Source: Hysterangium stoloniferum (lineage: Eukaryota > Basidiomycota > Agaricomycetes > Hysterangiales > Hysterangiaceae). From it: 64,000 nt of DNA. Below are positions 21,772 to 59,213 of this stretch, in pieces (positions within the stretch are counted from its first letter, which is position 1; each line of letters begins with the position of its first letter). A model generated the notes under the pieces. That model was not told the origin of the DNA, ran no database searches, and saw only the letters and a list, made by a program, of their open reading frames with translations. The DNA is taken from positions 124,001-188,000 of the forward strand of contig WHVD01000020.1 in the NCBI GenBank assembly GCA_015178975.1. Direction: 5' to 3'. The translations under genes were made by a program, and so were the position numbers.

Positions 21772-23164
21772 TCAAGACATAGGCACGCCTTCCCTCCACT
21801 GCTCCATACGCTGAGAGTTCTCTTGTACCTTCTTGTCATGGCGTTCTCTCGCAGCCTGTGAATTTCCCCAAAAGAACAACATCACGTCGTCCTCATCCCA
21901 CTTTGGCTGGCCCTTTGAATCCACCAATTCTCCTTCTTCAGTTGCAGCTCCAGCAGTGGAAGGTCCAGCAGCGGCATTCCCAGCACCAGATCTACCGGCA
22001 GCCCGGGCTGCGTGAAGCTTGTTAATTACAGTCATTCTATCGTGAGTAGTCCTCGACGGTCCCGATGGTGCAGGCACGGGTGGGCGAGGAGGCTGGGCGA
22101 GCTTTCGAAGGGTCTCTGTGCCATTGCCCCACCATTTGACGGCTGCAGCACCATAATTGTAGTGCAGCAACAAGTCAGATGGCTTTGGTTTCGTGGTACC
22201 TTTCATGAAAGCGGCGTCTCTATTGTCTGGAAGCACTTGGTGTATGGCCGGGTCGTCCGGGTTTAGCCATTGCAGCGTATATCGGCTATTTGTCGGATAT
22301 GTGACGCTTGTCGTCATATTGGGTCGTTTGTTGCGAGGGGGGATGTCTTTGGTGCTAAGATAGCGGTTGGGAGTCTTGATTATATCGGGGAGGTTGAGAT
22401 GAAACAATGACAAAGAGATTGACAAATATGACAAACCTTCAGGATGGCTATGTCGCGTGAATCAAATACGTGGTGTATCATATGACTTGCGAACACGCCA
22501 TTGCGAATATCATTAATGTCGTCGAGATCTCCCACATTCTCGCTGTAGTTTGGTCGATTGCCTACGATAAGCTGGAACCACTGAAATAGCCGAAGGGAGA
22601 TGGTCAGATGTTTCCCAAGCCAAAGATTGTAGAACTTACTTCGGAACCTCGACTAAAGGGAATGATATGTAAACCAGCTCCATTCTTTGGAGCAACTCCT
22701 GTCCACACACAAAAACCATCACGCTCCAACAAATTAGTGCAAAATTCATTGTGACTCTGCGTGGGTTCTGAAGGCACGCTTGTCCTCATCTTGATGACCT
22801 CAAGGTCAACAGCCTGGTAGGAATCTTTGTTGGATAGAGTACAAGTGTTATGTGTGCACGCATGATAGTAACAGCATCCGTAAAAAAACGTACTTGTATC
22901 CGTAATATAATAGTAGATCCCCCCATTGTCCAGACCTCCATCAGTACTAATGCTATCACTGTCAGAATCGAGCGCCAGACTGCCTTCAACACCGAGGATA
23001 GACCATGCAAGGTAGCGAAGATACTTCCGGGGTTTCAAACATAAAGATTCAATCGTGTCTAACGGTATTTGGAGATAAAAGGGTGAGTCTTCATCATCTA
23101 GAAGAACCAACCCAACAAAGTGATCAGGAATAGAAAGGGCATTGGATCCAGCAGACGAAGACAT
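21772..23164 (-). CDS. HNH_2-type nuclease-domain protein, copy I (400 aa, 4 exons)
   Basis: Exons 23164-22894, 22824-22640, 22580-22437, 22374-21772. The introns are 69, 59 and 62 nt; the first and last end in AAG. The HNH domain spans roughly residues 115-200: LLERDGFCVWTG (C129), GLHIIPFSRGSE (H143), NDIRNGVFA (~175-183) and HHVFD (H188/H189), matching the fungal HNH_2 layout. A conserved region follows (YTLQW, LLLHYNYGAAAVKWWGNGTE), then a Pro/Ala-rich linker and an acidic C-terminal helix (WDEDDVMLFFWGNSQAARER). This family is abundant in agarics; its cellular role is not known to me. It is the only one of the three local copies with an uninterrupted frame. Confidence 0.85.
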
Positions 23165-38585: not shown

Positions 38586-39010
38586 ATGTCCACCATCGTC
38601 TTGCTGTATGGACATCGACAAATCCGATCCAGCAGGGAAACCTGCTGGCCTCGGTACTCACTCCCAACCGTATACTACCCACCACTGGGTCACCAAGATT
38701 CTCAGAGTTCGATGCACACGTAGGTCGGCACGAATCAACTATCTTATCACTCCCTTTGGACCAGGCTCAGTAGTAGACTCCTAATCAGTAATTCTGGATG
38801 GGCAAAATGGTCGGGGTAGCGGTATCCCCTGATGAGAGCTCTCGTCGGCTCGAAACCATTACTATCCTGTTTCCCCTAGCCACCCTCTACACTAGCTGAC
38901 AAAGTTCAATCTTCAGAGACAACTGTTTGCGGCGAGTGATAAGGTGGTGGTTCACCCAGCAGCGCTTTGGTGGACGCTGGTGACCTCGCGTTGTCAAGGT
39001 CACCTGGCTA
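38586..39010 (+). mobile_element. ~425-bp repeat carrying a hammerhead ribozyme, copy A (insertion)
   Basis: Absent from the otherwise matching flank at locus I (empty site near 23,360: CATTTCAGC then TTTCTCCCCGC), so it inserted after or during the duplication. A second, CpG-depleted copy lies at 54481-54966. It has no coding capacity or poly-A tail, and I could not define a target duplication. It contains the ribozyme at 38806-38860. It could be a non-autonomous RNA-propagated element of the retrozyme kind; that is inference. Confidence 0.75.
38806..38860 (+). ncRNA. type III hammerhead ribozyme
   Basis: All core elements are present in order. Stem III is 38806-38811 (AAUGGU) paired with 38855-38860 (ACCAUU). 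The cleavage-site C is 38812 (GUC). Stem I is 38813-38818 (GGGGUA) with 38823-38828 (UAUCCC), including one G-U pair and the GCGG loop. The CUGAUGA core is 38829-38835. Stem II is 38836-38839 (GAGC) with 38848-38851 (GCUC) and an 8-nt loop. GAAA is 38852-38855. Stem III is the open stem, so type III. Self-cleavage would fall after 38812. Confidence 0.88.
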
Positions 39011-39203
39011 TTCTCCCCGCACTTATAAGGCCCTAAGCGGGCCTGTTGATAGTATTGTACAATTCTTCAATACGAAAATCCCACCGTTGGGTATATGGAG
39101 GTATGGGTTAAAACTGTGCCATTTCTACGCCGCCTGGTGTCACGTGACATACAAACGTTACAATTTTGTTTGTTTGCGGCATCGTCAACAACTTTCTACG
39201 TAG

Positions 39204-40263
39204 ATGTCTTCGTCTGCTGGATCCAATGCCCTTTCTATTCCTGATCACTTTGTTGGGTTGGTTCTTCTAGATGATGAAGACTCACCCTTTTATCTCCAAA
39301 TACCGTTAGACACGATTGAATCTTTATGTTTGAAACCCCGGAAGTATCTTCGCTACCTTGCATGGTCTATCCTCGGTGTTGAAGGCAGTCTGGCACTCGA
39401 ATCTGACGGTGATAGCATTAGTACTGATGGAGATCTGTACAGTGGGGGGATCTACTATTATATCACGAATACAAGTACGTTTTTTTACGGATGCTGTGAC
39501 TGTCATGCATGCACACATAACACTTGTACTCTATCCAACAAAGATTCCTACCAGGCTGTTGACCTCGAGGTCATCAAGATGAGGACAAGCGTGCCTTCAG
39601 AACCCATGCAGACTCGCAATGAATTTTGCACTAATTTGTTGGAGCGTGATGGTTTTTGTGTGTGGACAGGAGGTGCTCCAGACATTGGAGCCAGTTTACA
39701 TATCATTCCCTTTAGTCGAGGTTCCGAAGCAAGTTCTACAATCTTGTGCTTGGGAAACATCTGACCATCTCCCTTCGGCTATTTCAGTGGTTCCAGCTTA
39801 TCGTAGGCAATCGACCAAATTACAGTGAGGATGTGGGAGATCTCGACGACATTAATGATATTCGCAATGGCGTGTTCGCAAATCCTTTGATACACCACGT
39901 ATTTGATTCACGCGACATAGCCATCCTGAAGGTTTGTCATATTTGTCAATCTCTTTGTCATTGTTTCATCTCAACCTCCCCAATATAATCAAGACTCCCA
40001 ACCGCTATCGTAGCACCTCAGACATCCCCCTTCGTAACAAACGACCCAATATGATGACAAGCATCACATATACGACAAATAGCCGATATACGCTGCAATG
40101 GCTAAACCTGGACGACCTGGCCATACACCAAGTGCTCCCAGACAATAGAGACGCTGCTTTCATGAAAGGTACCAAGAAACCAAAGCCATCTGACTTGTTG
40201 CTGCACTACAATTATGGTGCTGCAGCCGTGAAATGGTGGGGCAATGGCACAGAGACCCTTTGA
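39204..40263 (+). pseudogene. HNH_2-type protein, copy II, truncated by an in-frame stop
   Basis: Exons 39204-39474, 39544-39728, 39788-39931, 39994-40263. Spacing is identical to copy I (introns 69, 59, 62 nt). The HNH residues are conserved (CVWTG, HIIPF, NDIRNGVFA, HHVFD). The second intron has a GC donor (GCAAGT) where the other copies have GTAAGT. At 40261-40263 a TGA replaces the CGA (Arg290) of copy I, ending the protein at 289 aa. The original frame continues open to 40602. The truncated form keeps the whole HNH domain, so a functional short protein cannot be excluded. Its promoter region contains the ribozyme repeat. Confidence 0.8.
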
Positions 40264-54480: not shown

Positions 54481-54966
54481 TATCTACCATCATCTTGCTG
54501 TATGGACACCAACAAAATCCATCCAGCAGGGAAACCTGCTGGCCCTGGTCCATGACCTGTCAGCTTCAGTGACCATTGATCACAGGTTGAAGCCTCCCTC
54601 CCCTGACAGATGCACCACAACCATATACTACCCACCACTGGGTCACCAATATTCTCAGAGGGCGATGCACACATAGCTTGGCACAAATTGATCATCTAAT
54701 CACTCCCTTTGGACCAGGCTCAGTAGTAGACTTCTAATCAGTAATTCTGGATGGGCAAAACAGTAGGGGTAGCAGTATCCCCCTGATGAGAGCTTCATCA
54801 GCTTGAAACTATTACAGTCCATTTCGCCTAGCCACCCTCTACCTTAGGTGACAAAGTTCAATCTTCAGAGACAACTGATTGTGGTGAGTGATAAGGTGGT
54901 GGTCTGCCCAGCAATGCTCTGGTAGATGCCAGTGACCTTAGCATTGCCTTGGTCACCTTGCTACTC
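54481..54966 (+). mobile_element. ribozyme-bearing repeat, copy B (decayed)
   Basis: Aligns along its length with 38586-39010 (CATCTTGCTGTATGGACA, ACCACTGGGTCACCAA, CCCTTTGGACCAGGCTCAG, GTTCAATCTTCAGAGACAAC) plus an extra ~60 bp near 54555-54615. CpG positions of copy A are mostly TG or CA here. Confidence 0.8.
54760..54813 (+). ncRNA. hammerhead ribozyme, degenerate copy
   Basis: CUGAUGA at 54783-54789. Stem II is GAGC/GCUU (one G-U) at 54790-54793 and 54801-54804. GAAA is at 54805-54808. Stem I is GGGGUA/UAUCCC at 54766-54771 and 54776-54781, with one extra C before the core. Stem III is shortened to about three pairs and the cleavage triplet is GUA. The core is intact but the folding is weaker than copy A. 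Confidence 0.65.
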
Positions 54967-57645: not shown

Positions 57646-58964
57646 TCAAAACATAGCCACGCCTTCCCTCCACTGCTCCATACGCTGACAGTTCTCTTGT
57701 ACCTTCCTGTCATGGCATTCTCTCGCAGCCTGTGAACTTCCCCAAAAGAACAACACCACGTCGTCCTCATCCCACATTGCCTGGCCCTCCGAATCCACCA
57801 ATTTTCCTTCTCTAGTTGCAGCTCCAGCAGTTGAAGGTCCAGCAGTGGCATTCCCAGCACCAGATCTACCGGCAGCCCGGGCTGCGTCACGCTTGTTAAT
57901 TGCCGTCTTTCTATCGTGAATAGTCCTCGACGGTCCCGATAGTGCCGGGACAGGCACGGGTGGGCGAGGAGGCTGCGCGCTTTCGAAGGGTCTCTGTGCC
58001 ATTACCCCACCATTTGACGGCTGCAACACCATAATTGTAGTGCAGCAACAAGTCAGATGGTCTTGCTTTCTTAGTACCTTTCTTGAAAGTGGCATCTCTA
58101 TTGTCTGGGAGCATTGCTTGTGCGGCCAGGTTCGGGTTTAGCCATTGCAGCGTATATCGGCTATTTTTCGGATACTTGAGTATATCGGTGAGGTTGAGCT
58201 GAAACAATGACGGGAGGTCGACAAATATGACAAACCTTCAGGATGGCTATACGGTGTGAATCGAACACGTTGTGTATCATAGAATTTGCGAACACGCCAT
58301 TGCGAATGTCATTAATGTCGTCGAGATCTCCCACATCCTCGCTGTAGTTTGGTCGATTGCCTACGATAAGCCGAAACCACTGAAATAGCCGAAGGGACAC
58401 AGTCAGATGTCTTCGAAGCACAAAATTGTAGAACTTACTTCGGAGCCCCGATTAAAGGGAATGATATGTAAACCAGTTGCCATGTCTGGGTCAATTCCTG
58501 TCCACGCACAAAAAACATCACGCTCCAACAAATTGTTGCAAAATTCATTGCGACTCTGCGTGGTTTCTGACGGTACGTTTGTCCTCATCTTTATGGCCGC
58601 GAGGTCAACAGCCTGGAAGGAATCTTTGTTGGATAGAGTACAAATGTTATGTGTGCACGCATGCCAGTAACAGCATCGGTAAAAAAAGCGTACTTGTATC
58701 CGTAATATAATAATAGAACCCCCCACTGTCCAGATCTCCATTATTACCAATGCTGTCACCGCCAGATTCGAGCGCCAGACACCCTTCAACACCGAGGATA
58801 GACCATGCAAGGTAGCGAAGATACTTCCGGGGTTTCAAACACAAAGATTCAATGGTGTCTAGCGGTATTTGGAGATAAAAGGGTGAGTCTTCATCATCTA
58901 GAAGAACCAACCCAACACAGTTATCAGGAATAGAAATAGCATTAGATCCAAGAGATGAAGACAT
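57646..58964 (-). pseudogene. HNH_2-type protein, copy III (broken)
   Basis: Exons 58964-58694, 58623-58439, 58379-58236, 58174 onward; introns 70, 59 and 61 nt. The one-base difference in the T run of intron 1 (70 versus 69 nt) supports that intron being real. The HNH core is present (CAWTG, LHIIPF, NDIRNGVFA). Compared with copy I it lacks 75 bp (25 codons, in frame) at the start of exon 4 and has a 2-bp loss near 57,980 that shifts the frame, ending the protein at 57911. The original C-terminal frame remains visible down to 57646. A pseudogene, though the HNH part could still be translated. Confidence 0.8.
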
Positions 58965-59213
58965 CTACGTAGAAGGTTGTGGCGACGCCGCGGACGAACG
59001 AAACTGTGACACGTGCCGGCGGCGTCGAAACGGCACAGTTTTAACCCATACCTCCGTACTCAACGATGGTACAGTACTTTCAACAGGCCCATCTAAGTGC
59101 GGGAAGATATGTTGGCCTTATTCATACGAATGCATAGCCGATCCATTTCAGTGATTGCCGCTACAATGAAATTTACCGAACTGGTGATCCGACAATATAA
59201 GATTAAATAATCA

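What the first reader, a model, noticed from the sequence alone, without database searches (positions are those of the whole stretch)
38806..38860. A complete type III hammerhead ribozyme in a fungal nuclear repeat
Every core nucleotide and all three stems are present in 55 nt: stem III AAUGGU/ACCAUU, cleavage GUC, stem I GGGGUA/UAUCCC with tetraloop, CUGAUGA, stem II GAGC/GCUC, GAAA. Finding seven plus four invariant nucleotides in register with three pairing stems by chance is very unlikely. A second copy in the window retains the core. Hammerheads are established in plant and animal retrozymes, Penelope-like elements and some fungal RNA viruses; I know of few in short fungal genomic repeats.
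Basis: partly seen in the sequence, partly recalled or inferred. Interest (0 to 1): 0.9.

Follow-up and report, generated by a model that had tools for sequence, protein, structure and literature searches.

The report
Hammerhead ribozyme inside a mobile repeat
A short jumping DNA element, scattered in many copies through what looks like a fungal genome, carries in its middle a well-preserved RNA motif of the kind that can cut itself, which makes it a good case for learning what such self-cutting RNAs do for small mobile elements.

Summary
The 55-nt motif at 38806-38860 is real and complete: a type III hammerhead core with all three helices, cleavage expected after 38812. Rfam RF00008 matches end to end at 28.3 bits, E 9.7e-5, below its curated 48.5. 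A hammerhead descriptor gave 4 hits in 4.44 Gb of random sequence. The motif lies in a dispersed element (window 38589-39011; older copy 54483-54963). The genome holds 107 exact matches to a core pattern and 145 element 5' ends. Ends are fixed; of four filled/empty comparisons three show precise insertion without duplication, one lost 11 nt. In 19 older copies the ribozyme changes slowest (core 1 change in 208 sites, 15.6 expected). Activity is not shown: predicted folds hide the CUGAUGA core in a hairpin, by 2.4-4.9 kcal/mol. Best reading: a SINE-like non-autonomous element whose RNA is processed by its own hammerhead; what mobilises it is unresolved. Known kin: type I hammerheads in Yarrowia repeats and five little-described type 3 hits in Pleurotus. 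New variant of a known kind.

The parts
38806..38860 (+). type III hammerhead ribozyme motif; cleavage expected between 38812 and 38813
   Evidence: read directly; RF00008 28.3 bits E 9.7e-5; family model R1 82.4 bits, this copy being one of the model's own sequences
38589..39011 (+). dispersed non-autonomous element (young ~425-nt class) carrying the ribozyme in its middle
   Evidence: 40 scored genome matches, the other 39 starting at query 28-39 and ending at 460-468; ends of the fetched copies; bounds
38829..38848 (+). rival hairpin CUGAUGAG/CUCGUCGG that would hide the catalytic core
   Evidence: MFE structure; 99.5% of cells paired in 26 copies
38979..39011 (+). 3'-terminal hairpin GGTGACC..GGTCACC followed by TGGCTAT, the element's 3' end
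   Evidence: alignment fold, aligned rows, sequence
38589..38594 (+). 5' end TCCACC, pairs with GGTGGA (38969-38974) in the consensus fold
   Evidence: one pair C-G in 51 and U-A in 4 of 55 copies
54483..54963 (+). older, longer copy of the same element
54757..54815 (+). hammerhead of the older copy: core kept, GUA cleavage triplet
   Evidence: family model R1 75.6 bits (this copy is one of the model's own sequences); sequence
59000..59192 (-). inverted copy of the host sequence that lacks the element (diverged empty site)
   Evidence: repeat pairs I11 and I16, alignment

Best explanation
The repeat is a SINE-like, non-coding, non-autonomous mobile element (about 425 nt in its young form, about 482 nt in its old form) whose RNA contains a type III hammerhead that cleaves it once, near the middle (after 38812 in this copy). 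Shown: the motif, the copies with fixed ends, insertion without target duplication in the four empty-site comparisons made (three precise, one with an 11-nt loss), and slow change of the ribozyme. Inferred: (1) the element is transcribed; (2) the ribozyme cuts element RNA or read-through RNA, the halves staying paired by stem III and a helix joining the 5' end to the 3' region; (3) a protein supplied in trans by another element copies it into new sites, probably through RNA; (4) the rival hairpin over CUGAUGA may keep part of the RNA uncut and thus full length.
For: 107 exact matches to a core pattern, 0 for the reversed control; 145 5' ends with up to 3 mismatches, 0 control. Fixed ends at 56 distinct sites. 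Empty sites: 3 of 4 precise, 1 with an 11-nt loss. Ribozyme constraint: 19 old copies, non-CpG core changes 1/208 against 15.6 expected (P 1.6e-6) and whole motif 20/832 against 62.4 (P 1e-10). RNA structure: double changes at columns 51-58 (G-C 36, A-U 17) and 6-464 (C-G 51, U-A 4). The same ribozyme occurs in a different repeat context at 5 places; R1, built without them, scores the 4 fetched loci at 68-71 bits. One copy reduced to its 3' 77 nt looks like the 5' truncation that RNA copying gives.
Against: No cleavage or transcription data. The predicted best fold hides the core: young family -22.3 against -17.4 kcal/mol, window copy -20.9 against -17.2, old family -20.0 against -17.6; with 91 nt of context the hammerhead stems I and III are not predicted either, and the folds are only mildly more stable than shuffles (z -1.90 and -1.28). 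Pair counts do not separate the hammerhead from the rival hairpin. Five of 22 old copies and one of 33 young ones have lost a core base; copy L042 lacks the 3' strand of stem I and L072 the cleavage site. No RNA-copying partner was identified: LINE 3' ends could not be fetched. Lack of target duplication is unusual for LINE-driven SINEs (recalled). Copies share ancestry, so the constraint P values are optimistic.
Confidence: 0.55

Rival explanations
1. Helitron-like DNA element: rolling-circle transposition moves the element and the hammerhead is cargo or acts only in transcripts.
For: 5' TC in 54 of 56 sites, CTAA in 31 and CTAT in 22 of 56, a hairpin close to the 3' end, no target duplication; at least 151 Helitron_like_N matches in the genome.
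Against: Insertion is not between A and T (12 of 56). The 3' ends that could be determined, 5 of 9 autonomous Helitron 3' regions fetched, all of one related group, differ. CTAT does not fit CTRR (Helitron rules recalled).
Confidence: 0.25
2. Inactive relic or pure hairpin: what is conserved is the CUGAUGAG/CUCGUCGG hairpin and the overall fold, not a working ribozyme.
For: Nearest-neighbour energies favour it by 4.9 kcal/mol in the young family, 3.7 in the window copy and 2.4 in the old family; its 8 pairs hold in 99.5% of cells; below Rfam's cut-off.
Against: It does not explain slow change outside the hairpin's 5' strand: HHR minus CUGAUGA changed 19/700 against 52.5 expected in old copies, and GAAA 0/57 against 4.3; the alignment fold picks hammerhead stems II and III, though with stem I out of register by about two bases.
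Confidence: 0.17
3. Retrozyme-like element that spreads through circular RNA made by two ribozymes in tandem or in LTRs.
For: Type III hammerhead in a dispersed non-coding element of viroid-like size with a shared RNA fold.
Against: No head-to-tail junction with up to 1 mismatch in the genome; no two of the 100 listed core places (of 107) lie within 500 bases in the same orientation; no shared TG..CA ends and no target duplication.
Confidence: 0.07
4. Chance resemblance to a hammerhead.
For: Not found in Rfam scans of longer stretches.
Against: 4 hits in 4.44 Gb of random sequence; slowest-changing part of the element; kept in a second repeat context.
Confidence: 0.01

Closest known systems
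Yarrowia lipolytica hammerheads (Perreault et al. 2011, PMC3088659; RNArobo paper PMC4870747)
   Same: hammerheads tied to interspersed repeats in a fungal genome (passages read)
   Different: searched and found there with a type I descriptor; here type III, in an element with mapped ends and empty sites
Hammerhead_3 hits in Pleurotus ostreatus (PMC5040776)
   Same: five Rfam type 3 hits of 55 nt in a basidiomycete genome (passages read); may be the same family
Plant LTR retrozymes
   Same: type III hammerhead in a non-autonomous dispersed element (passages read)
   Different: retrozymes have a ribozyme in each LTR and a circular RNA; here solo copies, no LTR, no head-to-tail junction
Metazoan non-LTR retrozymes and Penelope-like elements
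   Same: mobile elements with hammerheads
   Different: type I, usually in tandem repeats or in pseudo-LTRs
Ambiviruses and fungal viroid-like RNAs
   Same: hammerheads in fungal RNA agents (listing, passages)
   Different: circular RNA replicons; nothing in the passages read ties them to this genomic repeat; two exact motif searches of viral contigs found 0

Membership tests
Hammerhead ribozyme, type III | CUGANGA and GAAA core, U-H cleavage site, A15.1-U16.1 pair | tested here: met
   sequence, descriptor
Hammerhead ribozyme, type III | three helices with stem III open | tested here: met
   alignment covers model 1-54; 96.4% of cells pair in 26 copies
Hammerhead ribozyme, type III | score above Rfam gathering threshold | tested here: not met
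   28.3, 31.9 and 30.2 against 48.5 bits; it is called a hammerhead here by its core, helices and conservation, not by Rfam's cut-off
Hammerhead ribozyme, type III | self-cleavage | not testable with these tools
   none
SINE | short, dispersed, non-coding, fixed 5' and 3' ends | tested here: met
SINE | target-site duplication | tested here: not met
   no excess over shuffles; 4 empty sites without duplication; hence 'SINE-like', not filed as a SINE
SINE | pol III promoter, LINE partner | not tested
   33 LINE-type endonuclease matches exist but their 3' ends could not be fetched; promoter boxes were not scored
Helitron | 5' TC, 3' CTRR, hairpin near the 3' end | tested here: inconclusive
   TC 54/56; CTAA 31/56, CTAT 22/56; hairpin 7 nt from the end
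Helitron | insertion between A and T | tested here: not met
   12 of 56
Helitron | ends shared with an autonomous Helitron | tested here: inconclusive
   different in the 5 copies whose 3' end could be determined, of 9 fetched 3' regions and at least 151 matches; other groups untested
Retrozyme | paired ribozymes in LTRs or tandem units | tested here: not met
   0 head-to-tail junctions with up to 1 mismatch; no close same-orientation pair among the 100 of 107 places listed

The most novel reading that the evidence does not exclude
A new kind of ribozyme-bearing mobile element: a monomeric, TSD-less element whose hammerhead is held in an off state by a built-in hairpin against its own CUGAUGA core and is switched on only in certain RNA states, so that self-cleavage regulates rather than merely trims its own transposition.
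Probability: 0.12. Interest if true: 0.75.

Novelty: new variant of a known kind. Interest (0 to 1): 0.52.

Why it matters
Many genomic hammerheads have no proven job (passage; also recalled). Here is one with many young copies, sharp ends, empty sites and an older sister class, so what the ribozyme does for a small mobile element can be tested directly. It also shows that a type III hammerhead family with over a hundred genomic copies can stay far below Rfam's cut-off, so such elements may be overlooked in other genomes.

Tried and rejected
LTR or solo-LTR reading: no shared TG..CA ends and no target duplication. Tandem/circular unit: no head-to-tail junction. Helitron partner: 3' ends of 5 related autonomous copies differ. 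The 41 places of the old-type 3' end were compared by eye with the listed 5' ends, ribozymes and BLAST places (the lists are capped at 100): 29 of 41 have a listed partner; of the other 12, three were fetched, two carry a ribozyme (L125, L127) and one is a 77-nt 3' piece fused to another repeat (L126). Cross-species search: exact motif 0 hits in viral contigs and in bacterial/archaeal genomes; no fungal genome other than the window's own was available. Rfam RF00008 over the own genome scored only 68 of 19387 candidates and gave one weak hit (24.5 bits, E 0.333), itself a copy of the element. A pattern for other hammerheads (CTGATGAG not followed by A, then CGAAAC) gave 3 places against 2 in the reversed control; one of the 3 is element copy L075. 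Stem III C-G/U-A changes were not taken as proof of pairing, because both sides are CpG sites.

Full report
Observation. The sequence at 38806-38860 is exactly as described: stem III AAUGGU/ACCAUU, cleavage site GUC with C at 38812, stem I GGGGUA/UAUCCC around GCGG, CUGAUGA, stem II GAGC/GCUC, GAAA. Rfam does not report a hammerhead in the whole-window gathering scan, in a 1.6-kb E-value scan or in a 461-nt E-value scan. Given 91 nt it reports RF00008 over all 54 model positions at 28.3 bits, E 9.7e-5, under the gathering score of 48.5. A young family copy scores 31.9 and a copy in another repeat context 30.2. A descriptor of the type III hammerhead, written after seeing the motif, hit once in the window (both strands) and 4 times in 4.44 Gb of random sequence with the window's dinucleotide make-up, so about 1e-4 is expected in the window.

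The repeat. The window lies in an unnamed 111-Mb, 554-contig genome. A tight core pattern has 107 exact places, the reversed control 0. The element around it runs from 38589 to 39011 in the window. Of 40 genome matches that were scored (199 candidates), the 39 besides the window copy start at query 28-39 and end at 460-468, that is, at the same ends (ends of fetched copies). A pattern for the 5' end has 145 places with up to 3 mismatches, control 0. In 56 distinct insertion sites two size classes appear, 33 of 410-425 nt and 22 of 471-491 nt, plus one of 693 nt. The young class has GUC, sometimes GUU, at the cleavage site; most old copies have GUA. The window's second copy, 54483-54963, is of the old class.

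Insertion. Left and right flanks share no more than shuffled flanks do (mean longest match 1.79 against 1.61; 19% of shuffles as high). A query of 16 joined flank pairs found uninterrupted relatives for 4 sites; the tool scored 40 of 629 candidates, so this is a lower bound. Three are exact insertions with neither duplication nor loss (one with a substitution beside the joint) and one lost 11 nt. Flanks show some bias found after the fact: purine at -1 in 44 of 56, T at -6 in 30, T at +2 in 29. In the window, an inverted copy of the host sequence at 59.0-59.2 kb lacks the element.

Constraint. Excluding four copies chosen by the ribozyme pattern, the window copy and the window's second copy, 19 old copies differ from their majority at 7.5% of non-CpG sites outside the ribozyme, but at 1 of 208 core sites (15.6 expected, P 1.6e-6) and 20 of 832 ribozyme sites (62.4 expected, P 1e-10). 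In 30 young copies it is 0 of 330 core sites (4.4 expected, P 0.011). The ribozyme window ranks third-lowest of 428 overlapping windows, the two before it being shifts of itself by 3 bases and by 1; a second block near the 3' part is nearly as slow. Copies are related, so these P values are optimistic. With no exclusions, the core is intact in 32 of 33 young and 17 of 22 old copies; four of the six losses are G to A in the CpG before AAA, one is a deleted G and one an A to T change. Some copies are damaged outside the core: L042 has lost the 3' strand of stem I and L072 the cleavage site.

Structure. The alignment fold of 55 copies contains hammerhead stems II and III, a stem I out of register by about two bases, a helix joining the 5' end to the 3' region, a hairpin CCAGCARGGAAACYTGCTGG and a 3'-terminal hairpin. 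Two pairs carry non-CpG double changes: G-C 36 / A-U 17 (one copy unpaired) and C-G 51 / U-A 4. Each could be a single inherited event. Against activity, the single-sequence minimum-energy fold pairs CUGAUGAG with CUCGUCGG: -22.3 against -17.4 kcal/mol for the young family, -20.9 against -17.2 for the window copy, -20.0 against -17.6 for the old family. With 91 nt of context stems I and III are not predicted either, and z-scores are modest (-1.90 for 56 nt, -1.28 for 91 nt). Pair counts on 26 copies support both structures alike. Energy models omit the loop-loop contacts that stabilise natural hammerheads (established knowledge, recalled).

Second context. The same ribozyme, with homology to the element confined to about 50-80 nt, lies beside a 96-bp minisatellite at C1, C303, C441 (identical over the 266 nt searched), C99 and C30 (C303 was seen only in the listing). 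R1, built without them, scores the four loci fetched at 68-71 bits. In C30 one stem III pair is G-C where the main family has A-U (read by eye).

Mechanism. I commit to a non-autonomous SINE-like element whose RNA is cleaved by its own hammerhead, mobilised in trans, probably by RNA copying. For RNA copying: the RNA fold, the ribozyme, and one copy cut down to its 3' 77 nt. For a Helitron: no target duplication, 5' TC, CTAA in 31 of 56 and at least 151 Helitron_like_N matches. Against a Helitron: A^T insertion in only 12 of 56 sites, and different 3' ends in the 5 related autonomous copies whose end could be determined, of 9 fetched 3' regions. LINE-type endonucleases exist (33 matches, two of them just below the family's cut-off), but their 3' ends could not be fetched.

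Literature seen. Listings of eight searches and passages, found by search terms, of six papers. PMC7761336 places type III mostly in plants and circular RNA agents, type I in metazoa, and all types in prokaryotes; neither it nor PMC6155905 holds the words fungi or fungal. PMC3088659 reports hammerheads with interspersed repeats in Yarrowia; PMC4870747 finds those with a type I descriptor and adds a second family; PMC5040776 lists five Hammerhead_3 hits of 55 nt in Pleurotus ostreatus; PMC10162972 covers ambiviruses. In these searches I saw no description of a short fungal mobile element with a type III hammerhead; the library is open-access only.

Verdict. The finding is right about the motif and the repeat. 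The motif is not an isolated curiosity but the slowest-changing part of a mobile element family. Catalysis, transcription, mobiliser and host species remain untested.

Noticed in passing
window 39204-39764 (+), 22604-23164 (-), 58682-58980 (inverted): A repeated ORF beginning MSSSAGSNALSIPDHF; the two copies tested have no Pfam match. The ribozyme element sits about 190 nt upstream of one copy and is missing from the inverted copy.
   Followed up: partly
own genome: At least 151 Helitron_like_N matches, many in open frames over 1000 aa; the 3' ends of 5 related copies read AGCAAGGGTTCCYARGCTTGT(C), with a long hairpin upstream.
   Followed up: partly
L005, L089, L090, L095 (C1, C99, C30, C441): A 96-bp minisatellite abuts the same hammerhead in a second, low-copy repeat context.
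   Followed up: partly
L126 (C57:161400-161725): The element's last 77 nt are fused to an unrelated repeat also seen in L095 and L046: a possible 5'-truncated copy.
   Followed up: partly
L048, L065, L068 and relatives: Copies with a 3-nt deletion in loop 2 can still form the hammerhead helices but not the full rival hairpin; the predicted best fold is then a third one. The three named share their left flank, so probably one event.
   Followed up: partly
L094 (C531:175200-177200): A copy of the element split by about 1.27 kb of other sequence inside the stem I loop.
   Followed up: no
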